From the NCBI GenBank assembly GCA_947462535.1, contig CANHPN010000010.1, positions 1 through 61,674 of the forward strand: 61,674 bases of DNA, in the 5' to 3' direction. Below, piece by piece: positions 4,351 to 8,917 of this stretch. The stretch is from Akkermansiaceae bacterium (GTDB lineage: Bacteria; Verrucomicrobiota; Verrucomicrobiia; Verrucomicrobiales; Akkermansiaceae). Position numbers and translations under genes: made by a program. Each line of letters begins with the position of its first letter. Position 1 is the stretch's first letter. The notes under the pieces are model-generated. The model saw only the letters and a program-made list of their open reading frames with translations. It searched no databases and had not been told where the DNA came from.

Positions 4351-5877
4351 ATGCACCCGATCCACATGCTTCCCCTGCTGCTCGTCCTCACCGCCTGCGA
4401 GCTGCGGAAATCCGAACCCGCAGTCCGGACACCCGCCCCCCCTGCGGAATCAGTGGCCCCTCCCCGCGCGGATCTCAAGACCTCGGTCGTCCGGATCAAC
4501 TCCACCCAGCAGTCGTGGAATCCCGGCCAGCCTTGGGAAAAAAGCCCGCCGACCCAGCGCCGCGCCCTCGCCGCCATCGTCGGCCCGCAGCGCGTCATCA
4601 CCACTTCGGAACTCGTCGCCAATGCCACCTACCTCGAGTTCGAATCGCCCGACGGCACCCATTTCGCGCAGGCAAAAGTCATCGCCGTGGACTACGAGGC
4701 GAACCTCGCCCTGCTAGGCCCGGCCTCCGAGACGGAAGGAAAGCTCCTGTTCGAAAAAACCACCCCCTTGGAAATCACCGCGCCCCCGAAAATCGGCCAG
4801 GCCCTGGAAATCCTACAAATCGAGGAAAACGGCCAGACGCTCCTCACCCCCGGCAGCCTCCAGAGCATCGACGTCACGTCCAATTTCCTCCCCGGCCACG
4901 GCTTCCTCACCTACCTCGTCAAGGCATCCATGCAGAGCGCCGCTAGCAGTTATTCGCTGCCCGTCGTCCACGATGGGAAACTCACGGGCGTGCTCATCAG
5001 CTATAATTCCAAGGACCAGATCTGCGACGTCGCCTCTACCGACATCATTTCCCGATTCCTCCAGGAAAGCGCGGACGACGACTATCAGGGATTCCCCAGC
5101 CTCGGGATTTCCATCGCCCGCACCGAGGACGCGTCGTTTCGTCAATGGCTGAAACTCGCCGACGACCAGGGCGGAATTTACATCCAATCCGTCCGCAAGG
5201 GCGGCGCTGCCGAGACCGCAGGCGTCAAAAAGGGCGACGTCCTGCTCGCCATCGATGGCCAGGCGATCGACCGCCGCGGATACTATCAGCACCCGCACTA
5301 CGGCAGCCTGTTCTGGGGCCACCTGATCCGCGGCGAGAAGTCCACCGGCGAGTCCGTGACCCTCTCGCTGCTGCGCGAGGGCCAGCTGCTGGAAATCAAA
5401 CCCGTCCTCACCCGCGAAGAGGAGAGCGCGCGCCTGGTGCCCGCTTATAATTTCGGCAAGGCGCCTAACTATCTCATCAAGGGCGGCCTCGTCTTCCAGG
5501 AACTTTCCCGCCCGCTGATGGAAGCCTTCGGCGAGAACTGGCAAAGCCGCGCCCCGCTCAATTTCCTCGACGCCATGGAGAATCCCGAGAAATACGAGGA
5601 CAAGATGAACCGCGTCATCTTCCTCAGCGGTGCCATCCCCACCCCCGCCACCATCGGCTACGAAAGCCTGCGCAACCTCATCGTCCGCAAGGTCAACGGC
5701 AAGGAAATCAAGGACATGAAAAGCCTCATCGCCGCGTTCAATGGCAACATGAACGAGCGCCATTCCATCGAGTTCGCCGAGGAGGACTTCACCGTCTATC
5801 TCGACGAAGCGGTCTCCACCGGCGTGGACGCCCAACTCCTCCAGCGCGGCATCCCCCGCCTGTCCCGCGCGGAGTGA
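4351..5877 (+). CDS. HtrA-like lipoprotein with PDZ domain, probably a pseudoprotease
   Basis: A 508-residue protein. The start at 4351 gives a lipoprotein signal (MHPIHMLPLLLVLTAC, lipobox LTAC, Cys16). A trypsin-like region follows (roughly residues 50-230), then a PDZ domain (about 250-345: GIYIQSVRKGGAAETAGVKK) and a C-terminal region that may hold a second, weaker PDZ. Compared with DegP/HtrA the catalytic positions look lost: VITTSELVA stands where TNHHV is expected (no His), DYEANLALL where the Asp should be, and SSYSLPVV where GNSGGPLV is expected. I infer a non-catalytic binding protein in the periplasm. The in-frame extension upstream to 4252 overlaps dapB and is rejected. Confidence 0.8.
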   Translation: MHPIHMLPLLLVLTACELRKSEPAVRTPAPPAESVAPPRADLKTSVVRINSTQQSWNPGQPWEKSPPTQRRALAAIVGPQRVITTSELVANATYLEFESPDGTHFAQAKVIAVDYEANLALLGPASETEGKLLFEKTTPLEITAPPKIGQALEILQIEENGQTLLTPGSLQSIDVTSNFLPGHGFLTYLVKASMQSAASSYSLPVVHDGKLTGVLISYNSKDQICDVASTDIISRFLQESADDDYQGFPSLGISIARTEDASFRQWLKLADDQGGIYIQSVRKGGAAETAGVKKGDVLLAIDGQAIDRRGYYQHPHYGSLFWGHLIRGEKSTGESVTLSLLREGQLLEIKPVLTREEESARLVPAYNFGKAPNYLIKGGLVFQELSRPLMEAFGENWQSRAPLNFLDAMENPEKYEDKMNRVIFLSGAIPTPATIGYESLRNLIVRKVNGKEIKDMKSLIAAFNGNMNERHSIEFAEEDFTVYLDEAVSTGVDAQLLQRGIPRLSRAE

Positions 5878-5957
5878 GCGGTCAAGCTCGGCGGGCGTGA
5901 ACTCACCGAGCTGGTTCGTGTCGCAAAAATGGCAGAATCTCGACATCAGTCCGGAGA

Positions 5958-6030
5958 CGTGATAAGAAAAATCAATTTTCTTTACACGTTCATGGTGACA
6001 CGATAAGAAAAATCACTTTTCTTTACATGT
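5958..6030 (+). promoter_or_regulatory. two direct copies of a palindromic 29-bp element upstream of the fic gene
   Basis: Copy 1 spans 5961-5989 and copy 2 spans 6002-6030; they differ at only two bases and are exactly 41 bp apart, close to four helical turns. Each contains the dyad AAGAAAA/TTTTCTT with a 5-base centre. Copy 2 ends on the ATG of the fic gene (6027). The dyad symmetry, the same-face spacing and the position suggest an operator overlapping the translation start. Autoregulation by the protein's own C-terminal winged helix is an inference. It is AT-rich in an otherwise GC-rich region. Confidence 0.65.
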
Positions 6031-7103
6031 CTTCTCTCCCGCCACTGCCGTTGAAAAATCTCGCCTCGCTGGACACCCGCGAGGTTTGGATGGCGTTGAC
6101 GGAGGCGCACCGGCAGGTGGCCGAGTTGAAAGGCTTGTGCGAATCCCTGCCGAACCACGGAATTCTGCTCGATACGCTGTCCATCCAGGAAGCCAAGGAC
6201 AGCTCGGAGATCGAGAATATCATCACCACCCACGATGAAGTGTTCGCCTCGGACGAGGATTCCGCCGCATCGCCCGCCGCCAAGGAAGTGCGGCACTATG
6301 TTTCGGCCCTGCGGGTGGGATTCTCCGCCGTGCGGAGCGAGGGGCTGATTCGTTTGGAGACCCTGTTGGCAGTGCAGGCGGAGCTGCAACAAAACCGTGC
6401 CGGACTGCGCACGCTGCCCGGCACGGTGCTGAAAAACGAAGCGACCGGCCAAGTTATCTACGAACCACCGCAGGATGCGACCGAAGTGGCTGCGTTGATG
6501 GCGAATCTCATCGATTTCCTCCATGCGGATGACGGACTCGATCCGCTGTTGCGAATGGCGGTCGCGCATCACCAGTTCGAGAGCATCCATCCTTTTTATG
6601 ACGGCAACGGCCGCACGGGTCGCATCCTGAATCTGTTGATCCTCCAGCGCGAGGGGCTGTTGGATCTGCCCGTGCTCTATCTAAGCCGCTACATCACCAC
6701 CACCAAGGCGGATTATTACCGCCTGCTCCAGACGGTCCGGGAGGAGGACCGCTGGGCGGAGTGGAGCCTCTATTTGCTGCGCGGCGTGGCCCTGACCGGG
6801 CGCAGCGCCATTTCTCTGGTGAAGCGGCTCCGTGATCTCATGGCGGAAACGCAGTCGGAACTCCGCAAACAACTGCCCAAGATCTACTCGCAGGATCTTC
6901 TCAACAACCTGTTCCGCTACCCCTACACGAAGATCGAGTTCGTGGAGAAGGAGCTCGGGGTTTCCCGCGTGACAGCGGGCAAGTATCTGGAATTGTTAGC
7001 CACCGCGGGTTTCGTCCGGAAACAGAAAATGGGTAAAACGAATTTTTACATCAACGAGCCATTGCTGGCGCTGTTGAGCAACGTCAGCCTCAACCACGCG
7101 TGA
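6027..7103 (+). CDS. Fic family protein (class II, self-inhibited) with C-terminal winged helix
   Basis: Fic enzymes transfer AMP or other phosphate-containing groups to target proteins. The 358-residue product has the complete Fic core HPFYDGNGRTGR, starting at His188. The N-terminal inhibitory helix motif SSEIEN (residues 59-64) fits the (S/T)xxxE(G/N) consensus, with Glu63 as the inhibitory glutamate. This is the class II arrangement, in which the inhibitor lies in the same chain. The C-terminal ~60 residues (KIEFVEKELGVSRVTAGKYL) form a winged helix-turn-helix. It is a single gene with no partner toxin or antitoxin nearby, preceded by twin palindromes. All catalytic residues look intact; the target is unknown. 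Confidence 0.95.
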   Translation: MSSLPPLPLKNLASLDTREVWMALTEAHRQVAELKGLCESLPNHGILLDTLSIQEAKDSSEIENIITTHDEVFASDEDSAASPAAKEVRHYVSALRVGFSAVRSEGLIRLETLLAVQAELQQNRAGLRTLPGTVLKNEATGQVIYEPPQDATEVAALMANLIDFLHADDGLDPLLRMAVAHHQFESIHPFYDGNGRTGRILNLLILQREGLLDLPVLYLSRYITTTKADYYRLLQTVREEDRWAEWSLYLLRGVALTGRSAISLVKRLRDLMAETQSELRKQLPKIYSQDLLNNLFRYPYTKIEFVEKELGVSRVTAGKYLELLATAGFVRKQKMGKTNFYINEPLLALLSNVSLNHA

Positions 7104-7153
7104 CCCTCACCTAAGACCTTGCTTCCGCCGCCCGCCTTGGCGATTCTCCCATC

Positions 7154-8290
7154 ATGAGCCAAGACGTAGTCTCACTTCTCCAGCAGCTTGTCCGCATTCC
7201 ATCGGTCAATCCCGACAACGCGCCGGGCACCGAGCAGATCGGCGAGGAGACGCTCGCCATCTTTCTCACAGGCTGGCTGGAATCCATCGGCGCGGAGGTG
7301 ACGCTTGAGGAAATCAAGCCCGGCCGGCCGAACCTGATCGCACGCTTCGCGCCGCTCGACGGGCGCCCGCGAATTTTGCTGGGACCGCATCTCGACACGG
7401 TCGGCGTCGGCGGGATGGTCATCGAGCCGTTCGGCGGCGAGATCCGCGACGGGAAAATCTGGGGCCGCGGCGCGTCGGACACGAAAGGGCCGATGGCCGC
7501 GATGCTGTGGGCGCTGCACGACCATCAGGACGTGTTGGCGGATTTGCCGGTGGCGGTGGATTTCGTCGCGTTCATGGGCGAGGAATCCGGCCAGTGGGGA
7601 TCGAAGGATTTCGTGAAACGGCATGGCAAGGATTACACCTTCGCGCTGGTCGGCGAGCCGACGTCGATGCAGGTCGTCCACGTGACGAAAGGCTCGCTGT
7701 GGGCGACCTTGCGGGCGACCGGGAAAGCCGCGCACAGCTCGCAGCCGGAGCGCGGGGAGAACGCGATTCTCAAACTCACCCGCGCGCTCGACCAGCTCGA
7801 CCACCACCTCGGCCACCAACTCGCCACCTTCACCCACCCGGTGCTCGGCCGCTCGACGATGAACGTCGGCATGATCCGCGGCGGCGCGCGCCCCAACATC
7901 GTGCCGGATCTCGCAGAAGCGGAAATCGACATCCGCATCACTCCCGCGCTCGCCGCGGAGGGCGGCGCGCTGAAGCTGCTCACCGAAACCCTCGCGTTTT
8001 TCGACCTGCCGATCGAAATCTTGAACCCACACGAGAACCCGCCGATGGAAACGGCGGCGGATCACCCGATGATCCAAGCGCTGCTCGCCACCGACCCCGT
8101 CACCGGGCTCGCCGGCGCGCCGTGGTTTTCCGACGCCGCGCACCTTTCCAGCGGCGGGATTCCGAGCATCTGCATCGGTCCGGGCTCGATCGACCAGGCG
8201 CACACAGTGGACGAGTTCATCGAAATCTCCGCCCTCGAACAAGGAGCCGCGTTTTTGTCTGCCTTCATCGCGGGCTTGAAACGGAGGTAA
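7154..8290 (+). CDS. M20-family metallopeptidase (ArgE/DapE-like)
   Basis: A 378-residue dinuclear zinc hydrolase of the ArgE/DapE/CPG2 group, which removes acyl groups or cleaves small amide substrates in the cytosol. Zinc ligands are visible: GPHLDTVG (His79, Asp81), GRGASDTKGP, the catalytic glutamates in GEESGQWG, and the C-terminal histidine in DQAHTVDEF. The insert GEPTSMQVVHVTKG and the dimerisation-domain motif GKAAHSSQPERGENA are typical. Motifs alone cannot separate acetylornithine deacetylase, succinyl-diaminopimelate desuccinylase and a dipeptidase. No arg or dap neighbours are adjacent. Confidence 0.9.
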   Translation: MSQDVVSLLQQLVRIPSVNPDNAPGTEQIGEETLAIFLTGWLESIGAEVTLEEIKPGRPNLIARFAPLDGRPRILLGPHLDTVGVGGMVIEPFGGEIRDGKIWGRGASDTKGPMAAMLWALHDHQDVLADLPVAVDFVAFMGEESGQWGSKDFVKRHGKDYTFALVGEPTSMQVVHVTKGSLWATLRATGKAAHSSQPERGENAILKLTRALDQLDHHLGHQLATFTHPVLGRSTMNVGMIRGGARPNIVPDLAEAEIDIRITPALAAEGGALKLLTETLAFFDLPIEILNPHENPPMETAADHPMIQALLATDPVTGLAGAPWFSDAAHLSSGGIPSICIGPGSIDQAHTVDEFIEISALEQGAAFLSAFIAGLKRR

Positions 8291-8465: not shown

Positions 8466-8720
8466 ATGATGAACTACGAAATGACCAAGCACGCACGAAA
8501 GGCGCTCGAGGAACGGGAAATCCTGATCGAGTGGATGGAGCGAGCCTTGTCCGAGCCCGAACTAATCCTTCCCGACCCGGAGGATGCCACGGTTGAGCGG
8601 CATTTCCGGTGCATCCCTGAATTTGGCAATCGGGTCTTGCGGGTAGCCGTGAATACGGCAGTTGAACCCAACCGGGTTGTGAGTGTATTCTTTGACCGAA
8701 CGATGAAAGGCAAATTATGA
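8466..8720 (+). CDS. DUF4258 family small protein (putative toxin-like partner)
   Basis: An 84-residue protein that resembles the DUF4258 family (TKHARKALEEREILIEWMER at the N-terminus and a C-terminal RVVSVFFDRTMKG strand). DUF4258 genes are commonly found beside DUF2283 genes, and the pair has been proposed, not proven, to behave as a toxin-antitoxin module. Here the stop overlaps the ATG of the DUF2283 gene (ATGA, 8717-8720), so translation is coupled. Two consecutive ATG codons (8466 and 8469) could start it. No catalytic residues can be assigned from sequence. Confidence 0.75.
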   Translation: MMNYEMTKHARKALEEREILIEWMERALSEPELILPDPEDATVERHFRCIPEFGNRVLRVAVNTAVEPNRVVSVFFDRTMKGKL

Positions 8721-8917
8721 AACTGCATGTAGATCAAGAAGCCGACGCGCTTTATCTGAAGCTGGACGATTCGAAGATCATCGAATCCGAGGAGGTCTCA
8801 CCTGGAATCGTGCTGGATTTCGACGAGCATAATCAAGTGGTGGGCATCGAGGTGCTTCACCTTTCCCGCAGGACCACGAAGCTGAATTTACACGAACTGC
8901 AATACCAGACGGCTTGA
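8717..8917 (+). CDS. DUF2283 family small protein
   Basis: A 66-residue protein with the DUF2283 signature: HVDQEADALYLKL near the N-terminus, then the VSPGIVLDFDEHNQVVGIEV hairpin and a terminal LHLSRR segment. It overlaps the DUF4258 gene by four bases and has an AAAGG-like Shine-Dalgarno within that gene. If the pair is a toxin-antitoxin system, this would be the candidate antitoxin; that is inference from gene order only. Confidence 0.8.
   Translation: MKLHVDQEADALYLKLDDSKIIESEEVSPGIVLDFDEHNQVVGIEVLHLSRRTTKLNLHELQYQTA

What the first reader, a model, noticed from the sequence alone, without database searches (positions are those of the whole stretch)
5958..6030. Twin 29-bp palindromic elements, 41 bp apart, ending on the fic start codon
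Two nearly identical copies with dyad arms AAGAAAA/TTTTCTT sit four helical turns apart, and the second ends on the ATG. This looks like a cooperative operator that also blocks translation initiation. The Fic protein itself carries a C-terminal winged helix, so direct autoregulation, possibly altered by AMPylation state, is an attractive untested model.
Basis: partly seen in the sequence, partly recalled or inferred. Interest (0 to 1): 0.6.

Follow-up and report, generated by a model that had tools for sequence, protein, structure and literature searches.

The report
Self-operator array beside a Fic toxin
Two (probably three) near-identical DNA palindromes in front of an anti-phage Fic toxin gene belong to a precisely spaced array that accompanies this toxin in several bacterial phyla, most likely the docking sites by which the toxin's own DNA-binding tail keeps its gene switched off.

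Summary
The twin palindromes are real: site 1 at 5959-5987, site 2 at 6000-6028, 41 bp apart, with no other match within 3 mismatches in the assembled 2.8 Mb genome. A degenerate third site (5918-5946) lies in the same 41-bp register. The gene is a SoFic-type class II Fic protein (PADLOC SoFic E 6e-109) with a C-terminal winged helix.

The element is conserved. 78 of 114 relatives from several phyla carry the same 29-bp operator (consensus ATGTATAGAAAA-N5-TTTTCTATACAT) near the gene start. Of 90 neighbouring pairs, 81 are 40-42 bp apart. A profile trained on one taxonomic group finds it in the others. Seventeen further loci (lenient test) carry such an array just 3' of fic, several beside restriction-modification genes.

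Best explanation: a cis-acting operator array bound by Fic's own winged helix for negative autoregulation. This was shown experimentally for another class II Fic protein, CccR, so the model is not wholly untested. Translation block is not supported.

New here: the fixed 41-bp period, its breadth across phyla, and the array's switch between the 5' and 3' side of the gene. Binding by Fic itself is inferred, not shown; recognition-helix covariation was inconclusive.

The parts
5918..5946 (.). putative third, degenerate operator site (site 0), 41 bp upstream of site 1
   Evidence: family-profile score -3.0, third highest of all positions in the 290-bp region and exactly in register; only 6 of 12 arm pairs
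5959..5987 (.). operator site 1, 29 bp, 10 of 12 arm pairs
   Evidence: profile score 29.3 (the profile was trained on loci that include this one)
5988..5999 (.). 12-bp linker between sites 1 and 2
   Evidence: follows from the 41-bp period of 29-bp sites
6000..6028 (.). operator site 2, 29 bp, 9 of 12 arm pairs, last two bases are the AT of the start codon
   Evidence: profile score 23.4; same start-codon overlap called in 9 of 18 clade members
6027..7103 (+). fic gene, SoFic-type class II Fic protein, 358 aa
   Evidence: Pfam Fic_N, Fic, SoFic-like_C; PADLOC SoFic E 6e-109; AF2 model matches SoFic 3eqx at Z 45.6, rmsd 1.7, 351 aligned
6201..6218 (+). inhibitory-helix motif SSEIEN (residues 59-64; [S/T]xxxE[G/N] recalled as the class II motif)
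   Evidence: S59, S60, E63, N64 invariant in 42 sequences
6588..6623 (+). Fic catalytic motif HPFYDGNGRTGR (residues 188-199)
   Evidence: sequence; conserved
6837..7064 (+). C-terminal winged-helix domain (SoFic-like_C, residues 271-346), the proposed reader of the operator
   Evidence: Pfam PF21248 E 1.5e-22; AF2 helices 303-310 and 314-327 followed by strands 331-335 and 338-342

Best explanation
The repeats are the operator array of the fic gene itself. Each 29-bp palindrome offers two inverted half-sites (ATGTAWAGAAAA-like) to winged-helix domains of Fic. Neighbouring palindromes are held at a 41-bp period (12-bp linker, 3.9 turns), so Fic dimers bound to adjacent sites lie on one face of the DNA and can touch or bridge. 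Occupation of the array, which here lies between the upstream gene's stop (5877) and the ATG, represses transcription of this potentially toxic AMP-transferase in proportion to its own amount. Shown here: the array, its period, its conservation with fic across phyla, and that in 12 other genomes the motif occurs away from fic only at background level. Inferred: that Fic is the binder, that binding represses, and that adjacent dimers cooperate.
For: Conservation: 78 of 114 SoFic-like loci exceed the 99% shuffle level in -220 to +30 of the match start, against 0 of 107 far-upstream and 4 of 111 downstream controls (profile trained on these loci). Hold-out: a profile trained on 40 Verrucomicrobiota-side loci finds 50 of 74 others (downstream 5 of 72); the reverse finds 30 of 40 (1 of 39), seeded in both cases with the window's two sites. 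Period: 81 of 90 adjacent site pairs lie at 40-42 bp and 5 at 82-83; 44 of 47 and 17 of 19 held-out pairs; a profile-free palindrome test peaks at 41 (z 5.6, 62 loci). Separate set: 13 of 16 plasmid loci have a 5' site above the same score within 260 bp. Specificity: in 12 genomes, 16 of 22 forward matches within 3 mismatches lie at fic, including all 12 within 2 mismatches (places compared); the 6 others are at background (5 in the reversed-pattern control); one genome (that of L063) has none at fic. Hosts of 5' arrays include Verrucomicrobiota, Proteobacteria and Bacteroidota (record titles): the shared factor is the cassette itself. dsDNA rather than RNA target: GU-type 70 vs AC-type 85 mismatches, p 0.26. 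Precedent: CccR autorepresses through its C-terminal HTH on palindromic boxes.
Against: No binding data for this family: a 2023 paper states that DNA binding by SoFic had not been shown (PMC10628234). Operator variants do not track recognition-helix residues clearly better than the rest of the protein. Seventeen loci carry the array 3' of fic instead (lenient test), two loci (L121, L214) between convergent genes, where simple promoter repression of fic does not apply. Fourteen of 114 had neither by that test. No promoter was found in 5860-6060, and arm asymmetry gives no sign of embedded -35/-10 boxes. CccR's boxes are arranged differently (10-bp boxes, 26-bp gap). The control with distant Fic loci (0 of 49 upstream) is weak: only 23 of the 49 matches begin within the first 59 query residues, so in the other 26 the stretch scanned lies partly or wholly inside the gene.
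Confidence: 0.78

Rival explanations
1. A host transcription factor, not Fic, binds the palindromes and regulates fic.
For: No direct evidence that Fic binds; recognition-helix covariation was inconclusive.
Against: The same 29-bp operator and 41-bp period accompany fic in several phyla and on plasmids, and in 12 genomes tested they occur away from fic only at background level. A host regulator whose one target is this gene in every phylum is improbable.
Confidence: 0.07
2. The array acts at RNA level: hairpins in the fic mRNA hide the start codon or form an RNA antitoxin like the repeat arrays of type III toxin-antitoxin systems (recalled).
For: Folded as RNA, 5953-6035 forms a structure around the ATG (-23 kcal/mol, z -3.95); arrays beside toxin genes recall ToxI (recalled); 3' arrays could lie in the fic mRNA.
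Against: Sense-strand mismatches show no GU excess (70 GU vs 85 AC in 119 sites; 13 vs 14 in 36 3'-sites). Site 2 alone folds weakly (-2.9 kcal/mol). The start-codon overlap is called in only 9 of 18 members of the window's clade (other clades not examined for it). A constant period near four helical turns points to DNA.
Confidence: 0.06
3. The array is a DNA cofactor of the toxin as well as, or rather than, a promoter operator: Fic docked on it is held as an inactive or deAMPylating dimer, so that losing the array DNA releases toxicity.
For: The array is kept while its side changes at least 7 times on the tree (3 forced by well-supported branches). 3' arrays occur between convergent genes (L121, L214). 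DNA binding by the Fic protein CbFic2, which has a C-terminal wHTH, shifts it towards deAMPylation, and its authors speculate likewise for CccR (PMC10628234).
Against: The CccR authors found regulation and toxicity independent. Most 3' arrays precede another same-strand open frame and may simply be that gene's operator (15 of 17). No activity data for this family.
Confidence: 0.15
4. A chance duplication or a dispersed repeat element (REP or MITE like) that happens to lie before fic.
For: Tandem palindromes are common in dispersed elements (general knowledge).
Against: No further copies in the genome at the limits searched; conserved with fic across phyla with fixed period.
Confidence: 0.01

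Closest known systems
CccR of Yersinia pseudotuberculosis (PMC9755527; passages and section 10 part 1 read)
   Same: Class II Fic protein with C-terminal HTH; negative autoregulation by its own binding to palindromic boxes at its promoter; the box ATGATAATCT shares TGATAA with the window half-site GTGATAAGAAAA.
   Different: CccR boxes are 10 bp with a 26-bp gap (46-nt footprint); here 29-bp palindromes repeat at 41 bp in arrays mostly of 2-3, on either side of the gene. CccR is a T6SS effector; no such system was looked for here. Its protein sequence was not compared.
SoFic anti-phage defence protein (EcSofic PMC12249575, parts 1-2 of 4 read; structures 3eqx, 3zcn, 3zec)
   Same: Same domain build and fold (PADLOC SoFic E 6e-109; Z 45.6); the authors infer that leaky expression of EcSofic is toxic, so tight repression is needed.
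   Different: EcSofic has a small antitoxin gene AS1 downstream; in the window the next gene is an M20 peptidase at 7154. In the parts read no operator is described.
CbFic2 of Coxiella burnetii (PMC10628234; passages read)
   Same: wHTH Fic protein whose DNA binding regulates its enzyme activity.
   Different: Low sequence similarity (8cil E 8.5e-8); in the passages read it binds DNA without a known operator.

Membership tests
SoFic-type class II Fic proteins | Fic_N + Fic + SoFic-like C-terminal domain | tested here: met
   (all three above gathering score); PADLOC SoFic E 6e-109
SoFic-type class II Fic proteins | catalytic HPFx(D/E)GNGR motif and N-terminal inhibitory motif | tested here: met
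   HPFYDGNGRTGR 188-199 and SSEIEN 59-64, conserved
SoFic-type class II Fic proteins | score above NCBI's equivalog cut-off for SoFic | tested here: not met
   NF046030 357.8 bits against a cut-off of 550; it is a family member, not the SoFic equivalog
SoFic-type class II Fic proteins | protects against phage / AMPylates a target | not testable with these tools
   no assay possible
CccR-like autoregulated Fic repressors | C-terminal HTH domain | tested here: met
CccR-like autoregulated Fic repressors | palindromic operator next to the own gene | tested here: met
CccR-like autoregulated Fic repressors | AGATAATCAT-N26-ATGATAATCT arrangement | tested here: not met
   29-bp palindromes at 41-bp period instead
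CccR-like autoregulated Fic repressors | binding and repression by Fic itself | not testable with these tools
   needs gel shift and promoter fusion
type III toxin-antitoxin (RNA repeat antitoxin; recalled) | repeats act as RNA, so GU pairs should be tolerated on the sense strand | tested here: not met
   GU 70 vs AC 85, p 0.26; an indirect test

The most novel reading that the evidence does not exclude
The array is a DNA antitoxin: a mobile, side-independent docking strip that travels with the SoFic toxin and holds it in a safe, dimeric, DNA-bound state. Events that remove or mask the strip during phage attack (host DNA breakdown, or a phage DNA-binding protein) would release active toxin. 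Beside restriction-modification genes the same strip would couple release of the toxin to expression of the downstream hsdS/hsdR genes.
Probability: 0.15. Interest if true: 0.85.

Novelty: new variant of a known kind. Interest (0 to 1): 0.6.

Why it matters
SoFic is a single-gene anti-phage system found in defence islands that appears toxic when leaky, and how it is kept silent is open (PMC12249575, parts 1-2 read). A conserved operator, identified here with its consensus, its 41-bp period and a list of loci, makes direct binding, cooperativity and DNA control of AMPylation testable with a short DNA and one protein. The array's switch between the two sides of the gene suggests that its role may go beyond promoter repression. 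The period is also a handle for finding SoFic-like cassettes and their regulated neighbours.

Tried and rejected
Recognition-helix covariation: mutual information between four operator positions and protein columns (74 loci with sites, 53-72 usable per position) was no higher in the wHTH than elsewhere for three positions and slightly higher for position 1 (mean z 0.73 against 0.60; helix and wing 1.04; not tested further). Phylogeny dominates, so it neither helps nor hurts. Embedded promoter: although some loci read TTGACA-16-TATACT in register (L105), TATAAT-like left arms (35) and mirrored right arms (30), and TTGACA-like arms (31 vs 34), hardly differ over 148 sites. The sigma-70 scan of 5860-6060 found nothing. 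RNA hairpin selection: no GU excess. Empty site: homology of the flanks to relatives reaches 5881 and resumes at 7141, but the two flanking genes lie about 127 kb apart in G254, so no empty site could be shown. A stringent palindrome search of 387 genomes of the window's phylum hit 6 genomes (reversed control 5): the three hits with a 5-bp spacer are all at fic; the three others (L042-L044, spacers 6, 4, 7) show no fic gene in their ORF lists and look like background, though L043 lies just after an hsdS-like frame. Published description of this array: not seen in searches (listings only; open-access library). The SoFic-type structures 9tb0, 9tc4, 9tch, 9tcl and 9vjc were seen as sequence matches only and may bear on DNA binding.

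Full report
OBSERVATION. The window holds two near-identical 29-bp palindromes, 5959-5987 and 6000-6028, 41 bp apart, the second ending on the ATG of the fic gene at 6027. They are unique in the window (0 of 100 shuffles) and, within 3 mismatches, in the assembled 2.82 Mb genome. A third, weaker copy, 5918-5946, lies exactly one period upstream. It is third in profile score of all positions in the region but has only 6 of 12 arm pairs, so I call it putative.

THE GENE. The 358-aa protein has Fic_N, Fic and SoFic-like_C domains, matches the PADLOC SoFic model at E 6e-109, stays below NCBI's SoFic equivalog cut-off, and its AlphaFold model (pLDDT 86.9) superposes on SoFic 3eqx at Z 45.6, rmsd 1.7 over 351 residues. 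The catalytic motif and the inhibitory motif are intact. Of the three other genomes of its genus in the sample, one has an orthologue (82% identity) and two have no match at E 1e-30. Flanking homology to five relatives on each side stops at 5881 at the latest and resumes at 7141 at the earliest, so array plus fic sit in the non-shared stretch. The phylum is not named by the tools; I take it as Verrucomicrobiota because nearest named relatives are Verrucomicrobia and two same-phylum loci coincide with named Kiritimatiellae-type MAG contigs (L012/L104, L013/L123).

CONSERVATION. I collected 116 loci: the window and the best 29 others of its phylum (87 of 387 genomes had a match), 6 viral contigs (L033, cut at its 5' end, was dropped) and 80 named genome loci (the best 80 of 575 found, itself a capped list). 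After removing two duplicates 114 remained; near-copies such as L013/L123 are still in. A symmetric profile converged on ATGTATAGAAAA-N5-TTTTCTATACAT. From -220 to +30 of the match start, 78 of 114 loci exceed the 99% level of dinucleotide shuffles, against 0 of 107 far-upstream and 4 of 111 downstream stretches. Some of the downstream hits may be real 3' arrays, see below. Held-out tests: 50 of 74 and 30 of 40, with downstream controls 5 of 72 and 1 of 39; both runs were seeded with the window's two sites. A separate sample of 16 plasmid loci (of 40 rows listed, 261 records with a match) gave 13 with a 5' site above the same score, one with a 3' array (L214), and two below the score (L209, L211).

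PERIOD. With a lower score cut, loci carry 0 (31), 1 (18), 2 (42), 3 (21) or 4 (2) sites. Of 90 neighbouring pairs 64 are 41 bp apart, 81 are 40-42, and 5 are 82-83. The period is not built into the profile, survives hold-out (44 of 47 and 17 of 19) and appears without any profile (62 loci). Arrays of three sites at 41 bp argue that the period reflects contacts between bound proteins rather than one promoter's geometry (inference).

SPECIFICITY. In 12 whole genomes the palindrome within 3 mismatches gave 22 forward matches: 16 at the fic arrays and 6 elsewhere, against 5 for the reversed control pattern; all 12 matches within 2 mismatches are at fic; the genome of L063 has none at fic (places compared). 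In 387 genomes of the phylum the stringent palindrome occurs in 6 (reversed control 5); the three with a 5-bp spacer are all just upstream of fic. Among 49 distant Fic loci none has a site in the 450 bp before the match (2 of 46 downstream, L150 and L166), but only 23 of the 49 matches begin within the first 59 query residues, so this control is weak.

THE OTHER SIDE OF THE GENE. Loci without a 5' array often have one directly after the stop codon, with the same kind of arms and a 41-42 bp period. By a lenient pair test 83 loci are 5', 17 are 3' only and 14 neither; one of the 83 (L125) has a clear 3' array and only a weak 5' pair. Some 3' calls (L028, L082, the near-copies L091/L096, L098) are weak, and repeats visible in L022, L110 and L117 were not counted. 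By a stricter test 10 loci have a 3' array and none of the 78 profile-positive loci does; downstream it gave 11 locus-lag counts at lags 40-42 and 5 at the 13 other lags from 34 to 49. On a FastTree of 124 proteins (11 of the 16 plasmid loci added; 88 labelled 5', 19 labelled 3') the side changes at least 7 times, 3 forced by well-supported branches, against 17.7 in shuffles. Neighbours of 3' arrays include hsdM before and hsdS after fic (L079, and L117 whose pair is below the cut), a DNA methylase before and a res-type subunit after (L098), hsdR after (L118), an Eco57I-type methylase after (L125) and an N6 methylase with specificity domain after (L111, pair below the lenient cut, called by the strict test). 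So 3' arrays may be operators of restriction genes. In L121 (convergent ALA dehydratase gene) and L214 (convergent hydrolase gene) they lie between gene ends.

MECHANISM. The simplest account is negative autoregulation by the Fic winged helix. What these hosts share is the cassette, and CccR, a class II Fic protein with C-terminal HTH, does exactly this (promoter activity 3.3 times higher in the mutant, footprint on paired boxes, binding lost with mutated boxes). EcSofic appears toxic when leaky and is dimeric, so a tight self-repressor makes sense. Half-sites of neighbouring palindromes face away from each other across a 12-bp linker; a Fic dimer with DNA-binding helices about 70 A apart (value for CccR) could bridge them, which would explain the period (inference). 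Translation block is unlikely as a general feature: the start-codon overlap is called in 9 of 18 clade members, and mismatch counts show no RNA selection.

LIMITS. Nothing here shows binding. Covariation with the recognition helix was inconclusive and promoter position is unknown. A 2023 paper states that SoFic DNA binding was not yet shown. Further SoFic structures were seen only as sequence hits.

Noticed in passing
L079, L117, L098, L118, L125, L111: SoFic-like fic genes lie beside restriction-modification genes, with a palindrome array after fic and before the next restriction gene (the pair in L117 is below the cut).
   Followed up: partly
L214:2586-2656 and L121:4061-4171: Palindrome arrays between the 3' end of fic and a convergent gene, where they cannot be that gene's promoter; in L214 both 30-bp palindromes have 12 of 12 arm pairs and are 41 bp apart.
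   Followed up: partly
window 8466-8917: Overlapping small genes DUF4258 (84 aa) and DUF2283 (66 aa), resembling a toxin-antitoxin pair, just after the M20 peptidase gene that follows fic (reading as a pair is recalled).
   Followed up: no
window 5953-6035: As RNA the two tandem palindromes cross-pair into a long structure that includes the ATG (-23 kcal/mol, z -3.95); probably a by-product of the repeats.
   Followed up: partly
L087, L090, L024: In several 3' arrays the palindrome is 30 bp with a 6-bp spacer and the period is 42, so the 12-bp linker seems to be the constant; seen by eye, not tested.
   Followed up: no
L081, L085, L053, L048: Distal sites in some loci carry outer arms such as GACA or GACAC instead of TACA, like the putative third site of the window.
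   Followed up: no
L043:1501-1522: A perfect palindrome TAAAGAAAATCGATTTTCTTTA (4-bp spacer) just after an hsdS-like open frame in a genome of the same phylum, with no fic gene in the ORF list.
   Followed up: no
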